This document shows, one piece after another, positions 5,801 through 64,000 of a DNA stretch of 64,000 nt; position 1 is the first letter of the stretch; each line of letters begins with the position of its first letter. The position numbers and the translations under genes are program-made. Origin of the DNA: Selaginella tamariscina (Eukaryota; Streptophyta; Lycopodiopsida; Selaginellales; Selaginellaceae); NCBI GenBank assembly GCA_003024785.1, contig PUQB01000032.1:124001-188000 (forward strand), written 5' to 3'. Under the pieces are notes generated by a model. It was not told the DNA's origin and did not search any database. It saw only the letters and a program-made list of their open reading frames with translations.

Positions 5801-8800
5801 TGAAAGAGCAGATATATTCAGAAAACGTCGGCCCTCTGCCACGTGGCACACATGCGACACATGGTGCTGACTCATGGGAGCCAGATCACCACCCATGTGT
5901 CACTACGCATGTGTGTTATACACATGCGTATATACAGTATGTTACATATATACAGTATCTTACATTATCCTCCCCTCTGCGGCTGTGTAGATGGTGATGG
6001 ATCTGATGGTCCTGGATCGTGTGAGCTGGGCCATCTAAGGTATGACCAAATGTACTCAACGAGTCTCGAACGACAAACCGTTTCATTCGAACCACGTGAA
6101 CTATCTCAACCTCATGAGATCCCACCAACTATACTTGATATACCTAAGGACCAACCTTTCGGAGTACTCGGTAGGGACCAAGCCACTTATGTAATAAACC
6201 AGTTGCAAGCCTAGGTGCAGGCAGCTTGGGAAAACGTACCAGGACTAAGTCACCGTCAGCAAAATCTGGTGGAATTTGATGTCGTGCATTATAAAAAGAT
6301 TGTTGCCGCATTTGAGCTCGACCAAGATGTTCAACAGACTCTGCACGCAGAAGAGGCAAAACAGCATCCAAATGTCGAGCCCACATCTTGCATCCTCAGC
6401 ACGTGGCAGATTCGATGATAACCCCAATTCACTAGGCAACTTAGGATCATATCCATACAATGTCTTAAATGGAGAGATACCAATCGAACTCTGAATGCCT
6501 GTTACATAAGTAAATCTCAAACATCGCAAATACCAATCCCAGTCCGTGTGATTGAAGTTCACATACTTCGAGATCATACCCTTGAAGGTCCGATTCAATC
6601 GCTCCACCAAACCATCAGTTTGTGAATGATACGGAGAGGCAAATGAATGTTTTACCCCTAACCTCTCACACAACACTCGGAATACCTCTGCAATGAAAGC
6701 GGGGCCATTGTCTGATAACATCCGCTCTGGACAAGAATGCTGCAAAACCACATTATCGAACAGAAATAAAGCTGTTGACATGGCAGTTGCATCTGGAAGA
6801 GCACCAACCTCCACCCATCGAGTTAAATAATCGGATATAACAATGATGTACTGGTTACCGTGAGAAGAACGTGGAAAAGGTCCCATTAAATCCACTGCAA
6901 TTAACTCAAAAGGGCGAGAGACATTAATGGATTCCAACACCCCCATGGCCTGAGTCGTAGAGGAATTCCGAGTTTGACAAGTGGGACAGCTTTGAATATA
7001 CCTTCAACAAGCTTCTCTAGACGTAAAGGAACAAACTGCAGAGACACAGACTCCAAGCGTAATACAGGAGGAGAGAGTGAAAAATCACACATACCTTTCG
7101 ACTGCTTCAACCAATCACATCCCAGAATAATGTCAAAGACCTGGGAAGGACAACCCTAAGAGACCCAGAGGGAAACTTACGATTGTCACTCAAAACCAGC
7201 ATAGTCGAAGTGGTGTACTGTGATACTGCACGAGACTGCCCATTACCATATAAATGTGCAAAACCTTATCTGCACGTCTTAAAGGTAACGAGCACTGATG
7301 CGCTAGAGAAGTAGTTATGGAAGACATACTGGATCCTATATCCACAAGCACTGTGACTGAAAGATCATTCACTTGTGCAGAAAATGTGAAAACTGGATGA
7401 TTTGGTGGAACTTGCAAACCTTGATATGCATAGCGAAAAAGCATGGAGGTGAAGTCTCCATTGCACGGGATCCTCCGTCGCCCGTACGATTACTAGTTTT
7501 CTGCAACAGATCCATCTGCAAGAGAGGCTTCGTCATTTGGAAGCTCATCATCAGACATAATGGCCGCCATATGCACACCATCCGGAACATATGATCGCCA
7601 GCCTGGATGTGGTGGACGCCAATCAGGATACACATCGCATGCCCGTCAAGTATGTCCAGGCGCCCAACAGGCCCAACAATGAACTTGATTGGGTCGACCT
7701 GCATTGTTCCGATTCCTCCTGTCACGAATTCGTGGATTTTGACCACCACGGGCAGGTATTGGAGCAGGTGCAGGATGATTTCGTGGAGGTGGTCCATGGG
7801 GTGGGCCCCGAGGTCGACCACGAAAGGCTTGCCATGCAGGCACATATGCAGCAGCATCAACCTCCATTGGATCAGCACGCTGAACAAGAGGAGCAGGTAA
7901 CCCAAGGGGACCATGGCCTTCACCAGGCACCAACTCAAAATGTTGAGCTAGTGCAAAAGCTTCCTCCAATGTGGTAGGACGAAGAGCCCGAACGAATCGA
8001 ACAAGTTCGGTCGCATAGTTGGCCATAACATACCGAGCTTAATAGGCTCAGGCATGTTAGGATATGCACGCCGAACTAAATCCCCGAACCTAATACTGAA
8101 CCGCATCACAAACTCACCAGATGTTGTCGTATCGCATGCAGTTGTTGGAAAGCATCATCTGAATCCTCAACTTTGCCAAACGTATGTTTGAGGCATTTCG
8201 TCAACCAATTACTATTGGCTTGAATCTCTACAACCAATCCATTATACCACTTGAGTGTAGGGCCTTCCAAACATGTAGGGAATTCTCTGAGAGCATGGGC
8301 CTCATCCCAACCATGGTAATGAACAATGACTTGGAAATGATCAAACCAATAGTATACATTATCTCCTGGATCACCACAAAAGATCGGGGTCGAACCCTTG
8401 GATTTGTGGCCTGTGAAGAAGATGAAGGAGCAGATCCCCCGGCATGAGGCTCAGGCGGGGAGGGAAGAGAAGGACGAACCCTCAACAAAGCGCTCCAACA
8501 ACTTAATTTGTGCATCAATAGCAGTAGCAATAATGTTAAAAGCCGTCTCCATGTTCATTGTCATGGAAACAAGAAAAGGAAAAGGCGAAAGAAAGGAATA
8601 CCCAACTTCTCCACCAATGAAAGAGCAGATATATTCAGAAAACGTCAGATGTATTCAGCTACAAAACCCTGCTTATATATAGGAGGCCCTCTGCCATGGC
8701 ACACATGCGACACGTGGCACTGACACATGGGAGCCAAATCACCACCCATGTGTCACTACGCATGTGTGTATATACACATGCGTATATATAGTATGTTATA

Positions 8801-29366: not shown

Positions 29367-29942
29367 CTTGTAAGGAGGTAAAGTGTAAAGAACTACAATA
29401 AAGAGGAGAAGTCTATGCATATTACTAGAAAAATATATATATATATATATATATATATAAACAGTCAACAAACGACAATTCGGACCCGAAAAATTCTCCT
29501 CAAAGATGTGATATATTAGTATCTAAATTGGTCACTTGCACTATCTTAGTGTCGTTTTGCATGAAAAAAACAGCCAAGCTGCCAATAATTTCAACACTTT
29601 TAGAGATTCAATGAAAAATCTTTGCCAACGCATCCTTAACCACCTTAAACAGTTTGAACTTCTATCTTTATAATTGTTTATATATATATATACACACACA
29701 CACCTACATGTAAGTTATATACATATGTATATATCTATGTTTGTTTGTGTCTGTATGAGTTCGTGTAGTACATTCATAGAAATATGTAGGTACACATGAC
29801 ATTATTACATACAGAATTTCACTATAACAACTAGACTTATTATAAGAAAGATTCGTGATATTGTATATATTTCGATAATTATTATAACAAAAAGAATATC
29901 ATCATTATCAATAAATAAAAATATTTACACAATCACCTGCAA

Positions 29943-31791
29943 TTAGTGGAGAGTCCTACCGGTACCATTGGTAGCCATCTCCACATTCCTCTCCTTGTCC
30001 TCCTTATATGGAATAACAGGCGGCGCTTCACGCGGAACAATCCGTTTCCAGAACCAATGCCGCCTCCATACATTGACCATCTCCTCAATCGGTACATTCT
30101 TCGTCTCAGGAGGAAGAAATACACGAACAAGGACATGATCACCACCCATCCGCGAAGAACAAGAATATCCCATATTTGAAATGACATAGCATAGTTAAAA
30201 ACACTTGCGCGATCACGAACGTGAACAACAGGTTCACTGCAACAGTCACTGCTTGCCCTGCCGAGCGCGTCTCTAATGGGAAGATCTCGCTGGGTATTAA
30301 CCATCCCAGAGGTCCCCACGACCACGCGAACGCCGCCACGTATATGCATATGACAACCACTACCACCCACGCGAGGCCCGTTGAGAGAACCTTGGTTCCT
30401 CCAAACTTCGTTCCCAGTATGGCCGCTATTATTACCTGTTCCAATCCAATATGTTAAGTAAGTAAGTCTTACAGAAGCAATATCGGATAATTCATATACA
30501 ATGTGTGTGTGTATATATGTCACCTGGGAGATGACCATCTGGAACCCAGCCTCAAGGAGCAGCACTCGTCGTCCCCAGCGATCAACGGTGACAACAGACA
30601 CAGATGTTGCGAGGAGATTGACAGCCCCGATGATAACAGCAGAATACAAGGAAGCATCGCTTCCGATTCCAATGGTCTGGAGTAAGACAGGAGCGTAGAC
30701 GTGATCACGTTAATCCCGGTAAACTGCTGGAAGAATGGTAGCATGCACGCCATTACGAGCTGTGGCCTATCACGCTTCTTCAACAGCTTCTTGTATGGAT
30801 TACCAACCGCATTTGCGATCTCACTTGCCTCCTTGATATCTTCGTACTCTGCTTCTACCTCTTCCGTACCTCGGATCCTTACCAACAACTTCCTTCCTTG
30901 TTCGTACTTACCTCTCTCGATCAAACTGTTAAGCACATACACATCGTAAGGTTGTGTGTGTGTGCGTGCGTGTGTGTTTACCTGTTGGGTGTGTCGGGTA
31001 AGCATAAGCCACCAACGGTCATTAAGATTGCAGGAACACCAGCAAGTCCAAGTGATAGTCTCCAACCCCATGGATGAATTTTTGAAGTTCCATAGTTAAT
31101 AAGGTTTGCACATAATATTCCAAGTGTAATTGCTAGCTGAAACATTATGTTCAATCCACCCCGAAGCTTGGCCGGAGCCATCTCAGATAGATACAAAGGC
31201 ACTGCCTGTCAAACCGAACTAGTTAGAAAAGAAAAAGATTTGAGACAATAATCATTGTTACCTGGTTACCGAATCCGACACCGATACCGAGCATAATTCT
31301 GCCGAAAATAAGCATGCCGAGGTTCTGGGCAGCACCGGTAAGAGCAGCCCCAATTAGGAAACTGATGCCCCCAATGATGATGGAGGGCCTCCTACCGTGT
31401 TTCTTCGTCACATACGATGCGAAGAAGCTGGCAACGAGCCCGGCAAGGTAGAGACACGATGTGAAGGCGGTGAGCCCCTGGTCGTCGAATTGACAATAGT
31501 CCTTGTCCGATGTCTTCTCGTTCTGCTTCTTGCGCAGTACTTTGGGGAAAAACTTGCGGAGAAAATCGTCCATAGACGTAACTCCCCCTACATAAACAGA
31601 CATTCCATGTTAGATGTGTGTGTGTACGGATGCAATTATGCAAACGATGTACCTGAGATCCCGAGGTCATATCCGAAGATGAGCCCGCCACTGGCTGCAA
31701 CAATGCAAGCAAGGATGACATAAGGAGTAGTTCGTCCTTTGTATAGATCCGCTCTCCCGGATTTGGCAGATACCACTCCCCCACCAGCCAT
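29943..31791 (-). CDS. Sugar/H+ symporter, STP (monosaccharide transporter) family, copy 1
   Basis: Twelve-helix plasma-membrane hexose/proton symporter of the major facilitator superfamily. It starts [19 protein letters not shown], the usual STP N-terminus, then [20 protein letters not shown], the [10 protein letters not shown] loop, [106 protein letters not shown] and [10 protein letters not shown]. Introns are short and sit at the same places as in the copy at 35.8 kb. Compared with the family, one base is missing near 30698 (INVIT to YAPVLLQ) and there are further one-base shifts near 30155 and 30105, so the frame breaks two or three times. Either it is a young pseudogene or these are assembly errors. 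Confidence 0.8.
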
Positions 31792-31799
31792 TTCAACTC

Positions 31800-32670
31800 A
31801 GATACAAACTCTGGAATTTCTTAAAGAATCCCCTCAATCCTGTTCCATGTGGAGTACATACAAACAGGGGGCATATATAATATATATATATGCAGAGTGG
31901 ACACAACTTGTTAATCCAGATTGTTAAGTGGATAAGCATATTGTTTTAACTTGTTAATCCAGATGTGTTAAGTGGATAAGATTTGTTAAAACTCTCCAAA
32001 ATGTTACGTGTCCTCGTGAAACTCAAGATCTCGTAGACTTTTAAAACAAAAACTGTATTATTATCAAAACAATACGTATTAAAGTTGGTTGAAATATCAA
32101 AATGCGTAAACTTAGGATTCTGAATTGTTTATTACTCCCACCTAATGTGTGCGTGACAACACATTAATACCTTATCTTATTAGCTTAATTTATTATCGAC
32201 GTTTAAAGAAAAGTTAATAATAATGTTACTTATTAAATAAAAATTAGATATTCTGGTATATTCGAAAGGTCAAAGTCGTGCATTGACTCGTGCTGGAGAA
32301 GGAGATTCCGGGTCAAACTGCGTAGGACAACTAGATGTTTTATTTATACAGGATTATAGAATATTAAAAAAGCCCATGTTGGTTGACTTTTAAAGATTTT
32401 TATTGATCAATAACCGCTCAGCTTTAAAAAGTGTGACACGCATTCACATGTGTTTTTCATGCATGAGCTTGCCGACATATAATCGTTCTTTAGGGCAACG
32501 TCATTTCCAATAACACACGCGTCATATATGTATATGTGTAAATTTACAGGTGTACGTAAAAGTTACACACGGCAACGCCATGAGGCATCTTGGATTTAGA
32601 CATACATCAGATTTTGTCATTACAAACTAATTCCAACACGTAACATATTAGAGAATATTCACATAATATA
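31800..32670. promoter_or_regulatory. Divergent upstream region of STP copy 1 and PPR gene 1
   Basis: AT-rich spacer between opposite start codons. About 31907-31981 holds a tandem duplication of TTGTTAATCCAGA...GTTAAGTGGATAAG. No other gene or motif was assigned. Confidence 0.45.
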
Positions 32671-32681
32671 CTTTGCCATCG

Positions 32682-35346
32682 ATGAACCCTAATGTAGGAA
32701 CCCTAATGGAAGAGACACAAAGGTACGCAAATCTGCTACGGGAATGTGGGAAACACGGAGATATCTCGAATGCCAGAAGCGTTCATGCTCGAATTGCTGC
32801 AACACAACAGAACACAGGCAGTTATTTGGCTAATCTCATAGTCCAGATGTATGGGAAGTGTGGGAGTGTGAGAGATGCACGTAATGTGTTTGATCGCATT
32901 GGCAACAAGGATGTGTTTTCATGGACTATCATGATCACTGCATATGCCCAGAACGGGCATTGCAACGAGGCTTTGAGTCTCTTCCGGCAGATGAACATTC
33001 TCCCGCATGAGGTATATCTATGCATGTTTATATACATAGGTACACACAACTACAGTTTTGTACTGGAACAGGCGACTTTTGTGGGGGTTCTTGGCGTGAT
33101 AGCGAAACTGGGCTCCTACAAAGATGCAGTAGAAGTTCACAAGCAGATGTCTGCTTTATGTGTCAATCCAAGTGTCACTATTAGGAACACCCTGATTAAA
33201 ATGTACGGGAAATGCCAAAGCTTGCGTGATGCTAGGCTGGTCTTCGACAGCATGACACACCGTACAGTTGTTTCGTGGAATGCAATCATTGGAGCCTGTA
33301 CCGAGGTAAGCTCTTTTATCTTATAATATATATACATATGTAAGATGGACATATAGACAAACACATACATTAATTATAGCGTGACTTATAAGTTGTCACC
33401 TGTTTACTAATCTATATTATATGCTTGATCAGTAGAATGGAAAGTACACAGAAGCCTTGGTACTGTACATGGAGATGCTTGCTCGAGGTTTTGTCCCTGA
33501 TGAGATCACATTACTTCCAGTAATCCAGTCATGCACCGGCACACGGGATTTGATCTTTGGCAAAGAAGTTCACAAGTTGGTAACTACGCAAGGTTTAGAG
33601 TCCAACACAGTGATAGGAAACGCACTTGTAAACATGTACGCGAAATGTGGATGTATACAAGAGGCAAGAACGGTGTTTGACAAGATAACAAAAGACAGTG
33701 GTGAGTATCAATACAATGATATCTGGATATGCAGTAAACTCTCGAGGACAGGAGGCAGTTGACGTTTACAAGAAGTTTATCGTCTGTGGTACAGTGGATC
33801 CCAGTGATGTCACATATGTTATGCTTCTTGATGCATGTGCAAGCATCTACTCTCTTGAGGACGGAGCATTTATACACGATGAGATTGTCTTGAGGGGATT
33901 TGACGGGTTTGTTAACGTGCAGAATGCACTTGTTAACATGTATGGGAAGTGCCGGAGTGTGGAGAATGCTAGAAGTGTGTTTAGAGAGATTGCTGTGAAG
34001 GATGTCATCTCTTGGACAAGTATGATATCTGTATTAATGCAGAATGGGCAGGATAGAAATGCAATGGTTTTATTTCATGAGATGGAGGTTGAAGGTGTAA
34101 AGCCAAATAATGTCACTCTAGCTGTGGTTCTAGATGTTTTAAGTAGTCTGGGGAGAGTTGCAGAAGGACGAAGGGTACATGACAGGATTACTGAGATCGG
34201 TATGAAGGTGGATATGGTTCTCGGACAGTACTCATTGGATTCTATGTAGAGTGTGCTCGAGACTTGGTGACTGCAAGGAGTGTATTCGAGAAGACTTCAC
34301 CAAGGAATGTTGTTACATGGAACTTGATGATTACAGCAAGTGCCCAAACTGGGGATATTGAGGAAGCCTTGGCTTTATATCATGAGATGGATGCCCGTCC
34401 TAACGAAGCTACATTCTCTGGGATGCTTGTGCAACCGAGGGACATTGGAGAGGTCGAGAGAATACACGAGGAGGTGAGATCCCACAAGCTGGAAGCGAGT
34501 GCTGTATCAGGAACCGCTATTGTGAGTGCTTATGGGAAACTGGGGAGGTTACGGGAGGCAAGGGAAGTGTTTGATGGGATTCTTGTGAAGGACGTTGTGT
34601 CGTGGAACTCGATGATATCTGCATATGCACATAATGGAGCAGGAAGAGAAGCCTTAGAGGTGTACTACACAATGAGCCTTGAAGGAACGAAGCCTTCAGA
34701 AGCCACGTTTGTGAGTGTTCTTCTTTCGTGCACAGAGATGAACATGACACACTATGTTTCACGGACACGATCGCTTTGTTTATCGATCTTCAACAGTATT
34801 CTGAGTGCAGGATTTGAGAACGAGTTATCTGTTGCAAACTCTCTCGTGACGATGTTCGGCAAGTGCGGGGATATCCATCTTTCGAGATGGATCTTTGATA
34901 AAATACAGAGAAAGAACGCTGGAAGCTGGAGTTCCCTCATAACAAGCTATGCACAAAACTGGGTAGTGGAGGAATCCTTGCACTTGTTTCATTGCATGTT
35001 TCTCGAGGGAATGGAGCCGGGGGAGGCTACATTCACAAGTATTCTTCATGTATGCAGTCACAGTGGGCTCCTGGAGCAAGGCTTCATGTGGTTTCTGAGC
35101 ATTTTCAGGGACTTTGCAAAGATGCCAAACTGTGACCACTACCACTGTATGGTTGATATGCTGTCGAGGGCCGGTAAGCTCGCGGAGGCCGAGGAGCTCG
35201 TACAGAACATGCCTTTTCACCCTGATGCTGGAGCTTATAAGACATTACTTACGTTTAGTAATAATAAGAGTGTTCATGCTGCTGAGGAGATACTCAAACT
35301 TGAACCTGAGAACAGCTCTTCATATGTTCTATTCCCACATAGCTGA
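32682..35346 (+). CDS. PLS-class pentatricopeptide repeat protein 1
   Basis: PPR proteins bind organelle RNA through tandem 31-36 residue repeats and take part in editing, splicing or stability. The ATG at 32682 opens MNPNVGTLMEETQRYANLLR, and repeats such as LIVQMYGKCGSVRDARNVFD and VVSWNAIIGA recur to the end, about 20 of P, L and S type. Two short introns are likely: about 33010-33071, and 33307-33434. The frame shifts near 33702 (one extra base before VSINTMISGYA) and near 34226 (one base short before TVLIGFY). The tail (PDAGAYKTLLT) is an incomplete E-type end with no DYW domain. An N-terminal organelle signal is not obvious. It may be a decaying gene or carry assembly indels. Confidence 0.78.
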
Positions 35347-35786: not shown

Positions 35787-37774
35787 ATGGCTGGGGGAGG
35801 AATAGCTGTAGCTATGCCAGGATCCCGCGCTGCGGAGTACAAGGGAAGGATGACTGGCTATGTTGTTCTTGCTTGCATAGTTGCTGCCACCGGTGGTTCA
35901 ATCTTTGGATACGACATTGGGATATCCGGTAATTTGTATATATATTAAGATCTCATTTACATAGATGGTTGATGAAATTCTGTGTAGGTGGTGTGACGTC
36001 TATGAATGATTTCCTGGAGAAATTCTTCCCAGTTGTATACAGGAAGAAATTGGGAATCTTGAAGGAGGATGACTACTGCAAGTACAACAACCAGAAGCTC
36101 ACTGCATTCACTTCTTCACTGTATCTTGCCGGGCTCACTGCTACATTCGGGGCGTCTTACACAACGAGGAACTATGGAAGGAGGCCTTCGATTCTCATTG
36201 GTGGGTTCAGTTTCCTCATTGGAGCTGCTCTTAATGCTGCTGCTGAAAACCTTGAGATGCTCATCATTGGTCGACTTATGCTTGGTGTTGGTATTGGATT
36301 TGGAAACCAGGTATGTTTCAAAATGCCTGCTCTCGGTATTTGCTGCATACTGTGTGTAGTTGTGTAGATCTTATATGCGTACACTGCAGCGATAAGTGGG
36401 AATTGTATTGCAGGCAGTGCCGCTGTACTTGTCCGAGATGGCCCCTGCTCGGATGAGAGGGAGTCTGAATCTCATGTTCCAGCTTGCAACTACGATTGGG
36501 ATTCTGGCAGCCAACATCATAAACTATTTCACACAGAAGTTGCATCCATGGGGATGGAGGTTGTCGCTTGGTCTTGCTGGCGCACCTGCACTCTTCATGA
36601 CTGTTGGTGCATTCTTTCTTCCTGAGACTCCAAATAGTCTTATTGAGCGAGGCCGTATTGATCAAGGAAGATCGGTCCTTGAGAAAGTTCGGGGTACCAA
36701 GGATGTAGATGCTGAGCTCGAGGACATGGTTGAAGCTAGCCAGGTTGACACATAGTGTGTGTGTGTGTTTCGTTAACAATAACCTGTGTGTTTTGATTAA
36801 CTTAACCAGATAGCGAATGCAGTACAGCATCCATTCAGAAATATATTACAGAGAAGGAACCGTCCTCAGTTAGTCATGGCAATCTTCATCCCTGCCTTTC
36901 AGCAGCTAACAGGTATCGTAATAAACATATGTACACATGCTTGTGTGTGTGTGTGCGTGGGTGTTTACACTTACAAGAGCGTGTATTTGACAGGGATAAA
37001 CTCCATATTGTTCTACGCACCTGTTCTGTTCCAGAGTCTAGGTTTTGGTGACAATGCCTCTCTCTACTCAGCCGTCATGACTGGAGCTGTTATTACTTTT
37101 GCAACACTTGTTTCCATCGCCACCGTAGATCGATGGGGACGCAGATTCCTCTTTCTTGAAGGTGGCCTGCAAATGTTGATATGTCAGGTATGTGTACGTG
37201 CGTGCGTGTGCGTGTGTGAGAGATAACTATATTTTGCTGCAGACAATTATCGGAGTGATACTGGCAGAGAAATTTGGTGGGGATAAGGAACTCTCGAAGG
37301 GGTATTCTATTGCTGTAGTGACGTTAATATGCACATTTGTAGCTGCATTTGGGTGGTCATGGGGTCCTCTGGGTTGGCTGGTTCCCAGTGAAATATTTCC
37401 TCTAGAGACACGCTCTGCTGGCCAAAGCATCACTGTCTCCGTCAACTTGCTCTTCACATTTGGCATTGCACAGGTGCGTGAGTGTGCGTGTGTGTGTGTG
37501 TGTACGTCCTCATGGAGTTTTTTTGAACTACCAGGCTTTTCTGTGGCTGCTGTGTCACCTTAAATACGGCATTTTCCTGCTCTTTGCTGCACTTGTATTC
37601 ATCATGTCAGTATTTATATACTTTCTGCTGCCGGAGACAAAGAATGTCCCAATTGAGGAAATGATACACGTGTGGAGAAGGCACTGGTTATGGAAGAAAT
37701 ATGTGACTCCGGAAGGATACACTGCTGATAATGATGAAGAAAGCATTATCAAAAACAAGCTTCAACAACCATGA
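35787..37774 (+). CDS. Sugar/H+ symporter, STP family, copy 2
   Basis: Intact twelve-helix hexose/proton symporter. Exons in order: [20 protein letters not shown] to [29 protein letters not shown] to [28 protein letters not shown] with [18 protein letters not shown] and [53 protein letters not shown] with [53 protein letters not shown] and KNKLQQP at the end. Six short introns carry GT-rich tracts close to their 5' splice sites. It is the paralogue of the copy at 29.9-31.8 kb, in opposite orientation. No frame break was seen. The substrate cannot be read from sequence, though the family moves glucose and other hexoses into cells. Confidence 0.92.
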
Positions 37775-38033: not shown

Positions 38034-39296
38034 TTAGTTCATCTTAAATAGAGTTAAATCTATACATAAGAAAGTCCACACAAGTACTTCACGAAGTTTA
38101 CGGGTGAGGTCTATGAAGTCGTCCTCTAGTTCCGGAAGTAAACTGAGGAGCTCAGAAACATTCTCCTTTCTTTTCTTTGACTTAAGGATTATCTTATCTT
38201 CACTAGCTGCCTTCCTGGTTATCTTAAACACTGACCAATCTCGTAGATTATCATGGTTTATGGTATACTCCACTGCAGTGAACTTCACCGTGGTGAAAGA
38301 CTCGGTGCGGTTCATGTATGTCTTGTTCTTCTTATCTAATACAACTCCTGAACAAATGTGTGTGGCAACCTTGCCTTGCTGTTTCCAGAAGCATTTTTCA
38401 ATCGTGGTATACTTTACTCGCTTCTCATTCTGTCTCAATGGTACTATCCGGTACATGCAGCTGGATGCTGTAAGTAAACCATTTGATTATATATAGTAAT
38501 CTGTACATATATGCAACATTCATATGTGTGTGTGTGTGTGCGCGTGTGTGTTGTTTCATGGTCATATATATATATATATTATGTAGCAAGCTACACATTC
38601 ACGTATACACTCAAGTGATGTAGAGAGGAGCGAAACTCACATTGTGGCATCATCTGCCAAGGATGCTTATTGAAGAAATCTTTATCCACTATGATATTTC
38701 CTCCTTGTCACTTTGGATCCAGTTCTTAAGCGAATCAACAAGGTCTTTCTCCGACAAATCGATATCCTGTACATTATACACACACATGTATCACTTACAC
38801 ATACATGCATAGCTCATCAATCTACGAAATCAACTATCTAGAAAGCTAGCATATAATACAATGTATATTTACATCTCTCACTCTCACACACACACAAGAT
38901 TACCACTGGAGGAATACTGCAGGACTTAGACATACTGAAGAAAGTTGCATGAGACCAACCGCAGAAGTCATGTACTCTCACACCAAAACTTGTTTTTTGA
39001 ATATATGCAGGCATTGGGCAGCCAGGTAAGCGACATCTATGAGTGATCTGCTTGCTCAACTCTTCCATTCCTTGCAAAGCATGGAGTTTAGAACAGTAAT
39101 CGAAGCCGGGCTGCTTATCGGCATTGCAGGTAGAGAGTTGGCACTGGCTTCCATTGAAGATCTCGCTGTTCAGCCCATTGCTTCTTAAGATCATGTTCTT
39201 GATGTGGTGGGATTTACTGCAACATTCATGTTTCTTCCATGTGGGCTCTACAAATGCGAGCCTTGTGCAGCCCGGAAGTGCACAGATTTCATCCAT
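38034..39296 (-). CDS. Zinc-module plus divergent NAC-domain protein, copy A
   Basis: Three exons. Exon 1 (39296 to about 38900) has three Cys/His modules: CALPGCTRLAFVEP...CCSKSHH, CQLSTCNADKQPGFDYCSKL and CRLPGCPMPAYI...FCGWSHA, each of the form C-x3-[GT]C...C[SG]xxH. Exon 2 (about 38775-38640) reads DLSEKDLVDSLKNWIQSDKE then HPWQMMPQCE, resembling NAC subdomains A-C (DEELV.YLK, EPWDLP). Exon 3 reads IVPLRQNEKRVKYTTIEKCF, WKQQGKVATHICSGVVLDKK and DWSVFKITRKA, resembling NAC subdomains D-E (YWKATGKD, VVGMKKTLVFY, DWVLCRIF). A basic patch (KSKKRKE) could be a nuclear signal. One base seems missing near 38685. I know no described family with this arrangement; a nuclear DNA-binding role is inference. 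Confidence 0.65.
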
Positions 39297-45761: not shown

Positions 45762-46656
45762 ATGGATGATGAAATTTGTGCACTTTCAGGCTGCACAAAG
45801 CTCCCATTTGTAGAGCCCAAAGAAGCATGAATGTTGCAGTAGATCCCATCACATCAAGAACATGATCTTAAGAAGCAATGGGCTGAACAGCGAGATCTTC
45901 AATGGAAGCAGGTGCCAACTCTCTATCTGCAATGCCGATAAGCAGCCCGGCTTTGATTACTGTTCTAAAATCCATGCTTTGAAAGGATTGGAAGAGTTAA
46001 GCAAGCAGATCTCTCATAAGTGTCACTTTCCTGGCTGCCCAATGCCTGCATATATTGGCAAAACAAGTTCTAGTGTGAGATTCTGTGGTTGGTCCCATGC
46101 AACACTCTTTAGTCTGTCTAAAGCCTGCAGTATTTCTCCAGTGGTAATCTCGTGTGTGTGCGTGTGCTTGTGTGTATATTGTAAATGTACATCCTCTTGA
46201 TGAGCTACGCATGTAAAGACGTTTGTATGTGTAAGTGAATGTGTATATATATGTGTATGATGAATATATCATATACAGGATACTGATTTGTCGGAGAACG
46301 ACCTTGTGGATTCGCTTAAGAACTGGATCCAAAGTAACAAAGAGGGGCATATCAAAGTGGATAGAGATTTCTTTAAAATGCATCCTTGGCAGATGATGCC
46401 GCAATGTGAGTTTCGCTCTTCTCTCCCTCTCTGATCAGTATGTTATAATAGACAGTAGGTGAGAGGGTGCATGAGAAAAGGAAGATATGTGTATATACAT
46501 ACATCACTTGAGTGTATATATATTAATGTAATGTGTGTGTGTGTGTGTTGCATAAGTTTCACGGTCACACACAATCGTATATGTATATCAAAAGGTACAA
46601 TGAATCTATTACACATTAATAGCCGATTTTTCTCTATTCAAGTAAACTAGTTCCTA

Positions 46657-46692
<36 letters not shown>

Positions 46693-47069
46693 AATGGTTT
46701 ACTTACAGCATCCAGCTGATAGTACCATTGAGACAGAATGAGAAGCGAGGAAAATATACCACGATTGACAGTTGCTTCTGGAAACAGCAAGGCACGGTTG
46801 CCACACACATTTGTTCGGGAGTTTTATTAGACAAGAAGAACAAGACATACATGAACCGCACGGAGTCTTTCACCACGGTCAAGTTCACCGCGGTGGAATA
46901 CACCATTAAGGATGATAATCTGCCAGATTGGTCAGTGTTTAAGATAACCAGGAAGGCAGCTGAAGATAAGATAGTCCTTCCTTCAAAGAAAAGAAAGGCG
47001 AATGTTGATGAGCTCCTCAATTCCCTTCCGGACCTAGAGGAAGACTTCATACAGAAGTATGTTCCGTAA
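45762..47069 (+). pseudogene. Zinc-module plus NAC-like protein, copy B
   Basis: Inverted paralogue of the gene at 38.0-39.3 kb, with the same three-exon plan. Exon 1 starts MDDEICALSGCTKLPFVEP, then loses five bases relative to copy A. This puts CCSRSHHIKNMILRSNGLN in another frame and leaves the first zinc module split. Modules 2 and 3 (CQLSICNADKQPGFDYCSKI, CHFPGCPMPAYIGKTS...FCGWSHA) are kept. Exon 2 (46280-46404) gives LSENDLVDSLKNWIQSNKEG and KVDRDFFKMHPWQMMP, intact where copy A is shifted. Exon 3 (about 46713-47069) gives the NAC-like end, DWSVFKITRKAAEDK, stopping at IQKYVP. Similarity to copy A reaches into the upstream region. A protein starting at the ATG near 45862 would still hold two modules and the NAC part. 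Confidence 0.6.
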
Positions 47070-53812: not shown

Positions 53813-55375
53813 TAAATCTTCACACAAACCTACCATGTGAATACTTCGTGATGATGCCGAGAAGCACAACACCCTGTCCAAACTGTTGCGTGTCAAGACC
53901 AGAGAAAAAGAAAGTTAAAAACTGACCTTTGATTCGTTGAGCTCCCCGTAAGTTGCAAGCTCTTTCTGGAGTGTAACCATTTGAGCATTTATCCGAGTTT
54001 TCAGCTCAGGTAAAATATTTTTTATATGGTGCACCAAAATCTGAAACAGGAAAGACGCTTTTAATACGTAACGTATGTATAAATGTCTGTTAAATGATAA
54101 TATGTATATAACAACTAAAGACGCTGAAATAAGAAACTAGCCTGATTCAGCTTCTTTGCCAACTGAGGAATACCACATCGGTCTGAGAGGCTATGATAAA
54201 CCGGCCGAGTACGGAAAAATTGCTCCTCGTAAGCGAGAGCGTCTTGAATGCTTCTGTTGGTAATGATATCCTGCAAATATACATTAATAAAATATACAGG
54301 AAACTTTCTGTAAGTAGAAAACTATACCTCCTGACTACGATTCACAACACCAACATAGCCAAGGCGCAAAGGAATCACTTGCCCAAGCAAGAAATGACGA
54401 GCATCCGTACCCCTATCCATGATATCAAGCTGAAAAACGATAAAGTCCAGGGGTTTAGAATTCTAAAGTTATCGCAAAACTAACCTTAGTAATCACTCCA
54501 ATCGTACGGGATCCTGTCAAAATAACATTAGTATGCACGAGCTGAAATTCCTTGATATACGCAATGCACTTGTGTGAGCGACACACGCGCGTGCAAGCAC
54601 ACACACACACATGTACAACAACGTTTACCATCGGGATCTGCAATGCGAGCCATTTGGAGAGCATCTGAATTGGCCAAGTCGGCATTAGCAGGAGAAACAG
54701 CCAGAATGATACATGTGTCGTGCTTGATGTAGGAAAGAATCATGGTTCGTATGCGGGCTTCAATATCTGAGGGTTGATCTCCGACAGGCACTTTTGTGAT
54801 TCCTGGCAAGTCCACTAAAGTGATATTCAGCACCTTTGGTGAAAATATCTTTAGCCGGATTTGCTTATCCGATACTCCTTTATTCGTTCCAAGTTCTCTC
54901 TCCGTCTCCGCCTACAGATAAAATCAATACTCAGGTCCATGAAAAGCATGACGTGTGTGTATGCATATATAATAAGTTTCATATATATCTGGATACACTT
55001 ACCTGGATTTCTGTGCGGATAGCTGAGAAGTCCGTGAATCTCCGATTGGGCAAGTGCAAGAACTCCCCCCATTCCGATTTCATCCGATCGCCTGCTACTC
55101 GTCTGGACAAGTTGCAACACTAAAGGACGCCGGGTACAGATGTCGGAACCCCGGGGCAGGAAATCGCGGCCGACTAGAGCCTCAAGAACACTGGATTTTC
55201 CGCTGCTCTGGCTGCCGACAACCGCTACCTGTGGGAGTTCGATAGTGGAACCGCTTCCTAGCTGCGAAAAGATATCCTGAAGCTTGTTCACAATCGGAAT
55301 CACGTCGTGCCCGAGCGTAGGAGGTTGAATAGTCGAAGACGGAGGCGCAGTTCCGATAGGATTACCCGAATCCAT
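50913..55375 (-). CDS. DRP3: Dynamin-related protein DRP3 (mitochondrial/peroxisomal fission)
   Basis: Large GTPase that assembles around mitochondria and peroxisomes and drives their division. Start [14 protein letters not shown] at 55375. GTPase domain: [20 protein letters not shown] (P-loop), TRRPLVLQL (switch I), [14 protein letters not shown] (DxxG), [15 protein letters not shown] (TKLD), VGVVNRSQ. Middle domain: [80 protein letters not shown]. GTPase effector domain: [55 protein letters not shown]. Tail [20 protein letters not shown] then PTIKL and stop at 50913. About twenty short exons, all conserved blocks in frame. The insert between the middle and effector domains fits DRP3 rather than DRP1 or DRP2. 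Confidence 0.92.
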
Positions 55376-55922
55376 AAGATCTAACCCTAAGATGACACCT
55401 TAAAAAGAAGTGATTTTTCTTTCTTGTCTCTGAAGCAACCTGGATTGAAGAACAATCCGAAACCGGAACAATTCACCGATCGAGCCAAAAACGAATGGAG
55501 TAAGTAACCTCAGACGCAGAAACTCACCGATTTAATGCGCGAGTAGAAGACAGCAAAACCTTGAAAAGAGCGGATTTTGCTTCTCCCGGAAGAAGAACAA
55601 TGCCGTAGCCGAAAACTCACGATTCAATGCGGGCTCCGAGAAGAAGCTAAACATTGCGATGAACAAGAGCCCTAATTCCAAAACCCTACACAGTAGAGAA
55701 AGTTTGGTTTTGTTTGTTTGATTGGACCTCTGGTCGCCGTTGGATCCTCTATTCAATCTGGAACACATGTTGGCTGGCAATCAAGTCGACCTGGACCAAT
55801 CACTGGATTCTTCCCAACGGTACCATGAATATCCCTTCTACTTACATTCAAATTAACAATAATCGTCGAATATTCCTTTCGGTTTGGAATTTGCCCTAAC
55901 CCTAACAAGAATGATGTAGCTG
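55376..55922. promoter_or_regulatory. Divergent upstream region of DRP3 and the dynein light chain
   Basis: 547 bases separate the two opposite start codons. GC content is nearer that of the coding parts and includes likely 5' leaders on both sides. No specific element was identified. Being shared, it could co-regulate a fission dynamin and a dynein subunit, but nothing in the sequence proves this. Confidence 0.35.
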
Positions 55923-57264: not shown

Positions 57265-59156
57265 GTATGTATGTATGTTTGTATATATACTTACTTTTCC
57301 ATGTCTATTGCTCTTTCTTGAAGATTAGCTGTCCGTAAAGCTGATAAAGCCAACTAAAGAAAAAGCAAATGATTTAAAAGACAACCTGTATGTGTGCGTG
57401 TACGTGAGTGCATGAACAATCAGCCCATATGGACACGCTATAGCCATTTCCTTATTTTATATAATACATCAAAGTTGTGTGTATGTGGTGCGCTTGTGTG
57501 TGTGCATAACTTAATTGTTAAACTACCTGTCCAGGAGGAAATAGAAGTGGACAATCCGTCAAAAGTATATTGTCAACTAGAGCAGATGCAACTGTTTGCA
57601 GGTCCTACAAACATAAACAATATATACATGTAAGCAAGATATACATATACATGCCTCTGTGTGTGTACGTGTGTTTTTTACAAAAGAGCACGTACCCTTA
57701 TCTTTTGCATACTACTTTCATCCTTAGCTTCCATCCATCTCTGCACATCAAACATAAAAAGCTATCGCCACAAAAATACTATAGCACAAAAGTTACATAT
57801 ATGCATGCATGTTATGTATATCTCTTGCTCTCTCGGTCCCTCTCTCATATAACATAATTCAGTGTGGTGTTACCGACTTGTATGTCGAGGATGAAGCCAT
57901 TGAGGGCTCTGTATGGAGCATATACAATGAGATCGAAATTTAAACCCTTGAAAAACGATTAAAATTAATGATATCAGCAGAGAGAGAGGGAGAGAGAGGG
58001 AGAGAGAGCACCTGTAATAGACTAAGTTCATTTTTGAGAATGACTTGGTGGTCTTGTTGAATTCCCTTCCCGAGTTCTTCAGCCGAGACATGAAACTCTT
58101 CCACCTTGCAGGATATGTATATACATGTCAACCTATAAAACAAATACATAAACAAATGAATGTAAGGTTACATAACTTACATAATGTGCTTTGGATCGTG
58201 TTCCATCACTGACCACGAGAGATAAAAACGCTTGAAATATAAAACTGCTGTTGCCTGTGTACTCCCTAGAGTTACATTTTTGCAATATATTACAGGCATG
58301 TGTGTGTGTCGAGTCGAAATATGATATTATTTTCGCAAGTGTTGAACTTATACTTTTAATATAAACGTAATATATAAATTCTATATACTTGGTATATACC
58401 AGTTTGGAGTATTAAACAGTATAAATATATCTAAATAAAAGCATGTATAATATAAATGCGATTTACTTAAAACCAGCATCAAGTTTAAACAAGTGATTAT
58501 CAATCTCGACATGAATACCTCTCAGACATAACAATATACAAGTGTATGTAATATGTATTTTATATGTAGAATATAAACGAAAAAACCTGGATTTTGTTTG
58601 GGAAAGAGAATGCTCCACACACTTGTTGAATTTTCTGCTCGTAGTATCTGCGAATAAGTAGTTCTTCTTCAATGCCCAAAGGCTCAGGCAACCTATTTGG
58701 CCTCACACCTAACAAGAAACAATACTTATTTAATTGAGACGTTTGCATTGTTCTATACAACAGCGATTTGAGAGAGAGACCCACCTTCTTGTGGTTCCGG
58801 ATATGCCAATGAACCATCTGGCTGAATCTCAACACGAGTCGCACCGTGCTGAAAACAACAATACCATGTAATGCTTCCATTAAATATGTAATACTCATAT
58901 CTCTCTCTCGCACACGCACACGCACACGCACACGCACACGCACACGCACACACACAGTGTCTTACTTGTCGGAGAGCTTCAACAGCTCTTTCATTTGAAG
59001 CCCGGGCTTTATCGACCTGAATACGATCACACACATTAGGATTTAGAGAATCCGGGAATCCTGAACGGGATTCTTTGGGATTTAGACTCCTCTTACCAAG
59101 TCTTGTGTGGTAAAAATCCAGTGATCGCGGTGCGTCGATGTCAAGAAATCCGCCAT
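56773..59156 (-). CDS. CYCH1: Cyclin H, regulatory subunit of the CDK-activating kinase (TFIIH)
   Basis: Partner of CDKD and MAT1 in the kinase module of TFIIH. Start [20 protein letters not shown] at 59156, the family N-terminus. Then [53 protein letters not shown] and [13 protein letters not shown] (first cyclin fold), [20 protein letters not shown] and [43 protein letters not shown] (second fold), [44 protein letters not shown]. Reading on at 56910 gives a stop after EYVI. Using the donor at GA/GTACG and an acceptor near 56840 restores the conserved basic tail [19 protein letters not shown], which I prefer. The exact stop after that is uncertain. About twelve short exons; one intron carries a (GTGTGC)n-type tract (58909-58956). 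Confidence 0.9.
58909..58956. repeat. (CACACG)n microsatellite in a cyclin H intron
   Basis: Eight or so CACACG units then CACACA. On the coding strand this is a GTGTGC tract directly downstream of the 5' splice site. Confidence 0.9.
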
Positions 59157-59325
59157 TCCGCAAAAGACCTAAAACCTAAAAATATAATTAACTTTTCTAG
59201 GGTTCTTCCTAAATCTCACGTACAAACATCCTATGAAACTGTATATATAGTAAAAGTATATACTATCGAATCATCTCACGGACAATATATTATTCTTACA
59301 AACCCTAAAAATAATCTACTAAAGA
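59157..59325. promoter_or_regulatory. Compact divergent promoter of cyclin H and the DYW PPR gene
   Basis: Only 169 bases lie between the opposite start codons at 59156 and 59326. The sequence includes AAACCCTAAAAATAAT (about 59299) and AACCTAAAAAT (about 59173), telo-box-like motifs common near plant housekeeping and translation-related promoters. Function is inferred. Confidence 0.4.
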
Positions 59326-61172
59326 ATGAGTTCAAAGAGAGCAATCTCAAGCTTCATATCAGCACTGAAGACGTGCAAAGACGTGATACGGGCAGGAGCA
59401 TACACGCGTCGTGCATTCAAGCAGGGTTTCACACCAACGTCTTCCTGGCGACCAGCCTCATCAAAATGTACGCCAAATGCAGACACATGTCAGAGGCACG
59501 GAGCCTGTTCAATACATTGAGACACCCCGACGTGTTTTCCTGGACGGCAATACTTCTGGGATACGCGGAGAATGGGGAAGGCCACGAGGCCTTACATCTA
59601 TTCAGACAGATGCAGAACCACGGCTTTGTACCCGATACACGGTCTTTCCTCGGAGCGATAATGGCATGCTCGAGCCTCGCAGAGAATGAAAGCGGTGAGA
59701 AACTTAACGGGAAAGTCGTCAAGTTGAAGTCGTTAGAGAAGGGTATGAACATCCATTCTCAAGCCGCTGCACAAGGGTATATGTCCGACATATTCATTGG
59801 TACATATAATAGCTGCTTATATATATATCCTTGTATAATCTGTATAATCTTTACAGGAAACTCTTTGGTGGACATGTATGCAAAATGCGGGAGCATGAGT
59901 GACGCCAGCATGGTCTTCAGCAAGATGCCCATACTTGACGTGGTCTCGTGGAATGTCCTAATGCTGGGATACGTGTTGAACGGTGAGAGTGAAACAGCAC
60001 TGGCAGTCTACAAACACATGAGGAACTCGAACTGCACGGTGAACGGGCAGACTTTTGTAGCCGCTCTCAAGTCATGTGCGACCTTGGGTGCACTCGAAAC
60101 AGGCGAAGCGATCCGAGGGGAGTTACGGCTTGCTGAACTTAACAGAGATCCCCATGTCCGAGCCAGCCTGGTCGATTTCTATGCTAAGTGCGGTAGAATG
60201 GACTCTGCCAGGGAACTATTTAACGAAACCCCATGTCGGGATCTGGCTTTCTGGACGTCGCTTATCTATGGATATGCCCGACAGGGTGATTCTAACGAAG
60301 TGATGCTTCTGTTTGAGAGGATGGTGAGAGAGCAAGTGCCCTTAGACGGCGTTATCTTCCTCGCAGTACTCACCGCGTGTAACCACGCCGGTTTGTGTGA
60401 GCAAGCAAGGGAACTGCTCCAATCGATGTTGACAAGGTACCGAGTGAGACCGACTATTGAGCACTACCATTGCGTGGTCGATATGCTGGGACGCCTTAAC
60501 CAGGTTGAGGAAGCAATGGAAGTGGTTGGTGCAATGCCATTCCAGCCGAATGCAGTCACGTGGAGGATCGTTCTCAGCGCATGCAGGAGATGGAGAAACT
60601 CCGAGGTCGGGAAGGTTGCGTTCGAGTCTCTTGTCCGTCTCGATGACAGGCAGTCTGCGGCTTACTTACTGATGGCTGATATATACGCGAGCCTGGAAAT
60701 GTGGGAGGAAGAAGCACATGTACTTCGTATGAAGTCTGAGGCCGGGGCCTTGAAACCTCCCGGACACAGCTGGTGGACGGACGGTGACGGGAATGTTCAC
60801 CGGTTCATGATCGGAGATACAAACCATCCCCAGGGGGACGTTATACGTTCCAAGCTGAGGGAACTGCTTACACGTATGAAGACGGAGGAGGGGTACATTG
60901 CAAATGTTGGTAGTGTTCTTCACAACATCTCCCAGGTTTCAAAGGAAGATGCACTGTGCGAGCACAGCGAGAGGCTGGCTATCTCGTGTGCCATTGTTAA
61001 CACTGAGCCGGGGAAGAGTATACGGGTTGCCACCAACCTTAGAATGTGTGAGGATTGTCATAAGGTCGTCTCGATCATTTCAAAAATGGAACGCAGGGAG
61101 ATCGTTTGTAGAGATTCAAGCCGGTTTCATACTTTTAAACTCGGCAAGTGTTCTTGTAGAGATTTTTGGTAA
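59326..61172 (+). CDS. DYW-class pentatricopeptide repeat protein 2
   Basis: PLS repeats followed by E and DYW domains, the arrangement of organelle C-to-U RNA editing factors. The likely start is 59326 (MSSKRAISSFISALKTCKDV). About 60 bases later the frame changes by one to RDTGRSIHASCIQAGFHTNV, which then stays open to 61172. Repeats include SLIKMYAKCRHMSEARSLFN and SLVDMYAKCGSMSDASMVFS. A 57-base intron (59800-59856) inside the open frame is likely, joining FIG to NSLVDMYA. The E motif (EHYHCVVDMLGRLNQVEEAM) and the PGHSWW-type start of the DYW domain are clear. The deaminase-like zinc site is present: HSERLAIS and CEDCHKVVS. The protein ends CSCRDFW, a Phe variant of DYW. Confidence 0.88.
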
Positions 61173-61207
61173 ATTTCTAGTATATATATGTATATATAGA
61201 GAGAGGT
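61173..61207. promoter_or_regulatory. 35-base gap between two same-strand PPR genes
   Basis: TA-rich gap (TATATATATGTATATATAGA). It is too short for a full 3' end plus promoter, so the second gene must start from inside the first or the two share a transcript. Confidence 0.3.
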
Positions 61208-63272
61208 ATGGATGTGAATGGCTTTGCAATACTTCTCAAACAATGCAGAACACTATCACAAGGTAAACACCTACATGCCGAGCTTGTTAAGCATGGCTGT
61301 GTAAACAACCAGTATCTTGGGAATCTCCTCATTCAAATGTATGGAAAATGTGGAAACCCACAGGAAGCACGGACAGTCTTCGACAAGATGCCGGACAAGA
61401 ACGTTTTGTCGTGGGACATGATGCTTCTTGCATATAACCAGAATGGATGTAGTCGTGACGCTCTTAAACTCTTTAAGCAGATGGATCTTAAACCCACACA
61501 GACTGCCTATACATGTGCGATATCTGCATGCTCCACGTTGAAACTCTTGGACGACGGCAGGAAATCCACAAAGAGATATACTTCGAATCGGTGAGTGTAT
61601 CCAATTCACTGATGAACATGTACACGAGATGTCGATCCTTGCAAGAGGTAAAACATGTGTTCGATAGCATGCAACACAAGGACGTAGTCTCCTGGACTTT
61701 GGTAATCACCGCATTTGCTCAGATTGGGCATCCCCAGACGGCCATGACAATCTTCTACAACATGGACTTGGAAGGTTTTGTTTCTAATCAGGTTACGTAT
61801 CTGGCAATCTTGGGTACTTGTTGCACTTACGAACAAGGTGCCAAGTTACACCACCGTATAGTTGCCACCGGATACGACTGCAGTGTGACCATCTTGAACT
61901 CGTTAATGAGCATGTATGCGAGGTTACACTCAGTTGGTGAAGTGAAGAAGCTCTTTGATTCCATGTCAGAGAGGGCAACAGTTGTGTCATGGACTACAAT
62001 GATCTCTACATATGCACGCTGCAACAGACACTGCATGGCTCTGAAGCTCTACCATGATATGAACTTGGCAGGTGTGCATGCAGACGCATTCGTCTTTGTC
62101 ACGCTTGTGGATGTGTGCTCAGTTCTGCACATATCGAGAACGGTAAAAAGATCCACGAATGCATCTTGTCGTGTAGATTCGAGTCCGACGTCGTCGTTGG
62201 GAATTCATTGATTAACATGTATTCGAAGTGCAGGAGAACAGATGTTGCGAGGCGAGTCTTCGATGAGATGGTACACAAGGATAGCATAACATGGAACTCA
62301 ATGATCTCTGGATATGATGCAGGATCACCACGACTTGGCAGCGCTCGAGCTCTTTGGGGAAATGATACAGGAAGAGTCTGTCGTACCCAGTGAGGTGACA
62401 TACATTAACGCTCTTTGTGCTTGCTCCAATACTGAATCTCTACAAGATGGTAAAGAGGTACACGCACGTATAGTTGCCAGTGGGATGGAGAACCACGACG
62501 ATGTTGCGATCGCACTTGTGAACATGTATGGGAAATGTGGAAGTTTTGAAGATGCAAAAGCGGTGTTCTACAAGGGTTATGGATCAATGAACGAGGGGCT
62601 ATGGAACTCAATGATCGTGATTTACATGCACCAAGGGAGGTATAAGGAGGCGATAAAGATGTTTAAGAAGATGGACTTGGAGGGTGTTAAGGCTAGACAT
62701 GTTACATTCTCTAGCGTGTTAGGAGCGTGCTGCAGTACGGGGGACTTAAAACAAGGAATGCAGCTTCATAAGCGGTTTATAGACTCGGTTTTGCTACAGA
62801 TTCCATCCTCCAGAGCACGCTAGTGAACATGTATGGAAAGTGTGGGAGTCTCAGATTGGCAAAGGTTCTATTTGATCAGATGAGTACGAGAGATGTGCTT
62901 TCATGGAACACTCTAATCACTAGTTATGCTCAATACGGGCAAAACAAGGAGGCTTTGGACTTGTTTCATACAATGATTGTGGAAGGTTTGAGGCCCACCG
63001 AGATTACGTTTCTCAGTGTCACGTATGCTTGTGGACAAGCAGGATCCATCGAGAAGGCTCGAGCATTTATGGTGGATATGGTTGGTGAATACGATTCCCT
63101 GCCAACGCAGGAGCATTACAGGTGTATGATCGATCTTCTTGGGCGATCCGGTCGGTTGCAGGATGCCGAGGATTTGATCGATAACATGCCGTACGAGTGT
63201 GACTCCACAGCGTACACGAGCTTTCTTGCTGCTGCAGACTCCAGCTTAATGCTGATCGAGCCACCACATTAG
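61208..63272 (+). CDS. PLS-class pentatricopeptide repeat protein 3, frame broken
   Basis: Starts MDVNGFAILLKQCRTLSQGK, a typical first repeat, and continues with about 18 PLS repeats such as LLIQMYGKCGNPQEARTVFD, SLINMYSKCRRTDVARRVFD and LVNMYGKCGSFEDAKAVF. The frame moves four times, near 61562 (DDG to QEIHKEI), 62125, 62308 (SGY to MQDHHDL) and 62795 (IDS to FATDSI). Each site looks one or two bases short of the expected codon. The end (EHYRCMIDLLGRSGRLQDAE then ECDSTAYTSFLAAADSS) is a cut-off E motif without DYW. As written it is a pseudogene. As the repeats are otherwise well preserved, sequencing indels are an alternative. Confidence 0.7.
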
Positions 63273-64000
63273 CTGCTGATCATGAACATCCAAGCCACTC
63301 CGCTCCGTATATTTTTTGTCTAATATAGGGACTGCAGTCGATTAAATAATTTTACTGTTTATTATTTAAAACTCAAAAGAATTAAACATCATATATATAT
63401 ATATATATATAAAGAGGTATATATATACATATATCCTCATACTATTTGCCCACGGGTCACCTAAAGTGGGAGCACAAGGATGGTGACGAGGGTTGTTGGG
63501 ATTTCGCATACTCATTAACTTATGTCCTTATATTAAAATGGAAAAGAAATAGAGATTCCCAATATATCATGAATAGTCTTTACTATTTTTCAAACTACAT
63601 ATTCAACCAAATTCTGGGGTTTAACATTTTCAATGGATATTATATAAAACATGCATCCAGACAACATATACGTGTATATCTGTAGAAATGATGTCAGACG
63701 TATATATACGTTCGTTTTGGTTCATATGAGAGCGAATCTAAGCACATGTAAGCACCCACACAGACGTACACAATCCATACCCCGACCACTTGCATTCTGT
63801 ACAGTTCAGTAGTACCGCATACTACACACACTCACACACATGTGCAAAATGCTGCAATACATATAAATATGAATTGGTGAATTAAAATAAGATGTGATAG
63901 CATCTAGGTTACATTGAACTCGTACATACAATACATACACGTGTGTTAGTTTGTCAAACATTAGAACAACAGAAATGTATTGTATTGTCCCTAGTATACG
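63273..64000. other. AT-rich spacer at the window end
   Basis: Short tandem TA runs (63390-63440) and CA/GT repeats. The 79-residue frame at 63446 has no family resemblance. No gene seen. Confidence 0.5.

What the first reader, a model, noticed from the sequence alone, without database searches (positions are those of the whole stretch)
38034..39296. Unusual fusion: three Cys/His modules joined to a divergent NAC domain
Seen: three C-x3-[GT]C...C[SG]xxH modules in exon 1, then blocks that follow the order of NAC subdomains A to E (DLVDSLKNWI, HPWQMMP, WKQQGK, GVVLDKK, DWSVFKITRK). Known: NAC factors normally begin with the NAC domain and have a variable tail; I know of none with this N-terminal zinc array. 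Inference: a lineage-specific DNA- or RNA-binding family.
Basis: partly seen in the sequence, partly recalled or inferred. Interest (0 to 1): 0.72.

Follow-up and report, generated by a model that had tools for sequence, protein, structure and literature searches.

The report
Three-zinc-finger VOZ-like plant gene pair
A plant gene, present twice in the window, joins three small zinc-binding modules to a very divergent NAC-type DNA-binding domain; this is the layout of the known VOZ regulators but with three zinc fingers instead of one, and neither copy is intact as assembled.

Summary
Three minus-strand exons (39296-38904, 38766-38641, 38467-38034) encode three C-x4-C-x10-18-C-x3-H modules, then a NAC-like region. 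(1) Copy A exon 2 has a 1-base frameshift between DLVDSLKNWI and HPWQMMP. (2) An inverted second copy at 45762-47069 keeps exon order and splice sites and has exon 2 open, but lost five bases in exon 1. Exons are about 90% identical, introns 54-61%, dN/dS 0.36 (0.22-0.59): one constrained gene. (3) The layout resembles VOZ, a CCCH finger before a NAC-like region. Module 2 matches the recalled Arabidopsis VOZ finger beyond shuffles. The NAC match is weak: Pfam NAM E=3.9e-5, 24.6 bits, cut-off 27, copy A only; recalled VOZ1/2 behave alike. Our NAC part is not significantly similar to VOZ2 pairwise, so VOZ descent is likely, not shown. Folds failed (pLDDT 30-34). New variant of a known kind.

The parts
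38904..39296 (-). Copy A exon 1: ATG and three C-x4-C...C-x3-H modules (131 codons)
39207..39284 (-). Module 1, C-x4-C-x15-C-x3-H
39081..39143 (-). Module 2, C-x4-C-x10-C-x3-H, the one closest to the recalled VOZ zinc finger
38949..39035 (-). Module 3, C-x4-C-x18-C-x3-H, closest to module 1
38641..38766 (-). Copy A exon 2: NAC subdomain A-B-like blocks, split by a 1-base deletion relative to copy B
38034..38467 (-). Copy A exon 3: NAC subdomain C-E-like blocks, KKRK basic motif, C-terminal tail, stop
45762..46143 (+). Copy B exon 1, with a 5-base deletion in module 1 and a 9-base in-frame deletion in module 3
46279..46405 (+). Copy B exon 2, open through both blocks
46709..47069 (+). Copy B exon 3, 10 bases shorter at its start; in frame with exon 2 only if the donor lies 4 bases further on (after 46409), an alternative inferred by eye

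Best explanation
The locus is one of two inverted copies of a plant transcription-factor-like gene of VOZ-type architecture: C3H zinc modules followed by a divergent NAC-type beta-sheet domain and a short basic tail (KKRK). Shown: exon structure inferred from two copies, three modules, joint purifying constraint, sub-cut-off NAM match of copy A. Inferred: each module binds one zinc ion through C,C,C,H; module 2 is the original VOZ-type finger, and modules 1 and 3 are a related pair added later; the NAC-like part binds DNA, perhaps as a dimer, with the fingers extending or stabilising the contact, as in VOZ; the protein regulates transcription. As assembled neither copy gives the full protein; sequencing indels or recent decay are both possible.
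For: Three modules in one frame, far above chance. Copy A NAC part hits NAM at E 3.9e-5 and 6.4e-5, and 1.8e-4 in the full length, collinear over profile 10-120; 0 of 9 controls do. Recalled VOZ2 and VOZ1 hit NAM equally weakly: 4.5e-4, profile 37-121, and 7.3e-4, profile 13-121. Module 2 against the recalled VOZ2 and VOZ1 finger: 0 of 5000 free shuffles each, and 2 and 6 of 5000 with Cys/His held fixed; copy B module 2 gives 0 and 0, then 1 and 3 of 5000. In a scan of 1534 window ORFs (25 aa or more, stop to stop), a profile of the two recalled VOZs ranks exon 1 of copies A and B first and second, though with E only 0.19 and 0.26. VOZ domain-B is described as holding a CCCH zinc finger essential for DNA binding (passages of PMC12753073; three Cys and one His, passages of PMC7139294). 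Both copies keep exon order and splice sites; dN/dS 0.36 with 0 of 1000 bootstraps at 1 or above.
Against: The NAC part is not significantly similar to the recalled VOZ2 NAC part: 145 of 1000 shuffles reach it for copy A, 203 of 1000 for copy B, and the VOZ NAC-part profile gives exon 3 only E 7.6, eighth of the rows printed. The finger-only VOZ profile ranks an unrelated ORF first (E 0.058), exon 1 of copy B second (0.25) and of copy A fourth (1.2). The NAM score is below the curated cut-off, and copy B gives none. Modules 1 and 3 are not clearly VOZ-like once Cys/His are fixed. The VOZ sequences are recalled, not fetched; a string search for them in papers found none. Frameshifts in both copies. 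Three zinc modules, not one, and no room before residue 5 for a VOZ domain-A in this gene model.
Confidence: 0.55

Rival explanations
1. Independent fusion: three C3H modules of a more general zinc family were joined to an ordinary, fast-evolving NAC domain, and the resemblance to VOZ is convergence.
For: NAM match reaches into subdomain A (profile from position 10). Pairwise, the copy A NAC part is no closer to recalled VOZ2 (145 of 1000 shuffles) than to ANAC019 (69 of 1000) or 3ulx (63 of 1000); for copy B, VOZ2 203 against ANAC019 27 of 1000. Modules 1 and 3 pair with each other, not with VOZ.
Against: Module 2 is close to the recalled VOZ finger beyond its Cys/His pattern and the domain order is that of VOZ.
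Confidence: 0.25
2. The C-terminal part is not NAC-related; the NAM match is a chance best hit and the protein is an unknown zinc protein.
For: Score below cut-off; no match for copy B or exon 3 alone; a porin family (PF16946) also scores at E 0.01-0.03 on exon 3; hhalign not above shuffles; no PDB sequence hit for the composite; fold not confident.
Confidence: 0.12
3. Both copies are decaying pseudogenes of a gene that works elsewhere in the genome. This concerns expression and is compatible with the other readings.
For: Each copy has at least one frameshift.
Against: dN/dS 0.36 between copies; by my reading two other genes of the window, dynamin-like and PPR, also change frame inside coding stretches, which points to assembly indels.
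Confidence: 0.4

Closest known systems
[quoted passage not shown]
   Same: CCCH zinc finger N-terminal to a NAC-like region; sub-cut-off NAM match; module 2 similar in sequence to the recalled VOZ finger
   Different: Three modules instead of one; no domain-A upstream in this model; two introns here against three reported for soybean VOZ genes (PMC7139294 passage); NAC part not significantly alike pairwise
NAC (NAM/ATAF/CUC) transcription factors
   Same: Block order of subdomains A to E; NAM profile 10-120 of 122 in copy A
   Different: NAC-like part is C-terminal, preceded by zinc modules; below the curated cut-off, and undetected in copy B
EsV-1-7 cysteine-rich motif (Pfam PF19114) and CxC6 cysteine cluster (PF18721)
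   Same: C-x4-C and later C...H; module 1 touches PF19114 at E=1.4 and module 2 touches PF18721 at E=0.04
   Different: Far below cut-offs; EsV-1-7 ends C-x2-H (recalled), here C-x3-H

Membership tests
VOZ | CCCH zinc finger before a NAC-like region | tested here: met
   Modules C,C,C,H in exon 1, sub-cut-off NAM match of copy A exons 2-3; zinc binding itself not tested
VOZ | A single zinc finger | tested here: not met
   Three modules
VOZ | Finger sequence like VOZ1/2 | tested here: met
   Module 2 only: 0 of 5000 free shuffles, 2 and 6 of 5000 with C/H fixed; a finger-only profile was weaker (E 0.25 and 1.2, behind an unrelated ORF); reference sequences recalled
VOZ | NAC-like part closer to VOZ than to NAC | tested here: inconclusive
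   Copy A: 145 of 1000 shuffles reach the VOZ2 score, 63-231 of 1000 the NAC scores
VOZ | Domain-A upstream of the finger | tested here: not met
   First Cys at residue 5 of the model and the frame closes 13 codons upstream of the ATG; upstream exons not excluded
VOZ | Binding to GCGTN7ACGC | not testable with these tools
   Needs protein; in the window 8 matches, each with one mismatch, 5.6 expected, 20 of 100 shuffles reach 8
NAC | NAM profile above the curated cut-off | tested here: not met
   24.6 bits at best against 27
NAC | Subdomains A-E in order | tested here: met
   Collinear match to profile 10-120 for copy A; copy B none
NAC | NAC domain at the N-terminus | tested here: not met
   Preceded by 131 residues of exon 1
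NAC | Twisted antiparallel beta-sheet fold | tested here: inconclusive
   Exon 3 model pLDDT 33.7; three strands predicted, not confident

The most novel reading that the evidence does not exclude
A multi-finger VOZ family in an early land-plant lineage: the VOZ finger was tripled and the NAC-like domain drifted so far that homology searches call VOZ absent, so reported VOZ absences (for example in Selaginella moellendorffii, PMC6204039 passage) are partly missed divergent relatives.
Probability: 0.3. Interest if true: 0.6.

Novelty: new variant of a known kind. Interest (0 to 1): 0.48.

Why it matters
If confirmed, it would show that the 'one zinc finger' architecture of VOZ is not fixed, give a possible intermediate between NAC and VOZ, whose relationship is disputed (PMC6204039 discussion passage), and question reported absences of VOZ in non-seed plants. 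One paper places the VOZ origin in Anydrophyta, from Zygnema and Mesotaenium genomes (PMC12866927 passage), so an old, divergent member in another streptophyte lineage is plausible.

Tried and rejected
Two separate genes: rejected, because both copies keep the exon order, splice sites and constraint. Alternative splicing to avoid the copy A frameshift: by reading the sequence I found no plausible intron within exon 2; the in-frame route I found drops the first NAC block. Viral, phage or bacterial relatives: none in viral contigs (exon 1: 9 pattern hits, none confirmed; exon 3: 88 pattern hits, none confirmed), genome contigs (exon 1 only: 56 pattern hits, none confirmed) or phages (exon 1 only). 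PDB by sequence: exon 1 gave 15 weak matches, E 0.09 or worse, mostly GCN4 coiled-coil fusions and methionine aminopeptidase; NAC-part composite none. hhalign to three PDB NACs: score 14.2, shuffle mean 12.1, at least 5 of 100 shuffles higher; reversed 10.8. A three-sequence NAC profile against 1534 window ORFs put copy B exon 2 first, but at E 2.6, and exon 3 is not among the 12 rows printed. AlphaFold on exons 1 and 3, two-sequence alignments: uninformative; a fold search never ran. VOZ target-site scan: not enriched. Papers: two sequence-string searches found nothing relevant. One dN/dS script timed out and was rewritten. A reversed control was mistyped and incomplete (118 residues); replaced by an exact one.

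Full report
Anatomy. The locus is on the minus strand with exon 1 39296-38904, exon 2 38766-38641 and exon 3 38467-38034; both introns are GT...AG, 137 and 173 bases. Exon 1 encodes 131 residues with three modules, C-x4-C-x15-C-x3-H, C-x4-C-x10-C-x3-H and C-x4-C-x18-C-x3-H. Five of the 11 such motifs in six frames of the window lie in exon 1 of the two copies; 20 Markov-simulated windows gave 0-2 each. The six other matches show that this control is lenient. By shuffles with Cys and His held fixed, modules 1 and 3 are similar to each other (1 of 5000), but module 2 is not clearly like either (272 and 622 of 5000).

Second copy. An inverted copy lies at 45762-47069. It shows that copy A lacks one base in exon 2, so the two NAC-like blocks of exon 2 are in different frames, and that copy B lacks five bases in module 1, nine bases (in frame) in module 3 and ten bases at the start of exon 3. 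Copy B exons 2-3 can be read through if the donor lies 4 bases further on, which I inferred by eye. Exons are 89-91% identical (exon 3 over its alignable part), introns 61% and 54% over aligned columns. Over 261 aligned codons, indels left out, dN/dS is 0.36 (bootstrap 0.22-0.59; 0 of 1000 at 1 or above); by exon it is 0.38 (0.16-0.93), 0.21 (0.06-0.87) and 0.41 (0.18-1.02). By my reading, frame changes also occur inside coding stretches of a dynamin-like gene and a PPR gene in the same window (unrecognised introns not excluded for the PPR gene), so indel errors of the assembly are a serious possibility; I cannot decide between that and recent decay.

Is it NAC? With X at the frameshift, copy A exons 2-3 match Pfam NAM at E 3.9e-5 (128 aa) and 6.4e-5 (160 aa), and the full length at 1.8e-4, over profile positions 10-120 of 122; 24.6 bits is below the cut-off of 27. 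A composite with copy B exon 2 gives 0.0011. Exon 3 alone gives none in 2 of 2 forms and copy B none in 3 of 3 forms tried. A porin family, PF16946, also scores at E 0.01-0.03 on exon 3, surely by chance. Of 9 controls (8 shuffles, 1 reversal) none hits NAM, and the best E for any family is 0.011. Pairwise tests against three single NACs (27 to 231 of 1000 shuffles reach the score) and hhalign against three PDB NACs are not significant, and a profile of those three puts copy B exon 2 first of 1534 ORFs but only at E 2.6. My reading: a real but very remote NAC-type domain.

Is it VOZ? VOZ domain-B holds a CCCH zinc finger described as essential for DNA binding (PMC12753073, passages; PMC7139294, passages); VOZ has been filed under NAC, but that filing is disputed (PMC6204039, passages; PMC13023065, passages). 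They hit NAM at 4.5e-4 and 7.3e-4, as weakly as our protein. Module 2 matches their finger in both copies: 0 of 5000 free shuffles in four comparisons, 1-6 of 5000 with Cys and His fixed. A VOZ1+2 profile ranks exon 1 of copies A and B first and second of 1534 window ORFs, but with E only 0.19 and 0.26; the finger-only profile ranks an unrelated ORF first, and the NAC-part profile gives exon 3 only E 7.6. Modules 1 and 3 against VOZ are weak with Cys/His fixed (200-674 of 5000 for copy A, 293-1222 for copy B). The NAC part against VOZ2 is not significant (145 of 1000 for copy A, 203 for copy B). So the architecture and one module point to VOZ, but descent is not proven, and two VOZ traits tested, a single finger and domain-A, are not met. 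I call it VOZ-like, not a VOZ.

Literature. PMC6204039 states that VOZ is absent from Marchantia polymorpha and Selaginella moellendorffii (passage); PMC3880041 says VOZ evolved with Physcomitrella (passage); PMC12866927 places the VOZ origin in Anydrophyta (passage). In ten library searches I saw no report of a VOZ or NAC protein with three N-terminal zinc modules; these show capped lists (20 of 736 papers, 30 of 444, 10 of 48) and start-of-abstract text, and I read passages of six papers only.

Host. The window holds PPR genes including one with a DYW domain, sugar transporters, a CHY/RING zinc-finger gene and a dynamin-like gene, with GC 0.36. From this I infer a land plant, possibly a lycophyte of the Selaginella kind; the species is not established, and the genome search tool did not complete.

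Mechanism, inferred. Zinc modules stabilise or widen DNA contact by a NAC-type beta-sheet; a KKRK motif kept in both copies may serve nuclear import. No experiment or confident structure supports this: folds of exon 1 and exon 3 had pLDDT 29.5 and 33.7, and the fold search could not be run.

Noticed in passing
45762-47069 (+): Inverted second copy of the gene, about 90% identical in exons, with its own indels.
   Followed up: yes
54400-55420 (-) and 61181-63300 (+): By eye, a dynamin-like gene with a frame change inside an exon and a PPR gene needing about four frame changes; suggests assembly indels or decaying genes in this region.
   Followed up: partly
29933-31820 (-) and 35933-37774 (+): Two sugar-transporter genes in opposite orientation on either side of PPR exons (32667-35346), the second next to copy A.
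   Followed up: partly
6245-7003 (-): Retrotransposon-type integrase core (rve, E 3.5e-12).
   Followed up: no
59043-61169 (+): Open 709-aa frame with PPR repeats and a complete DYW deaminase domain.
   Followed up: no
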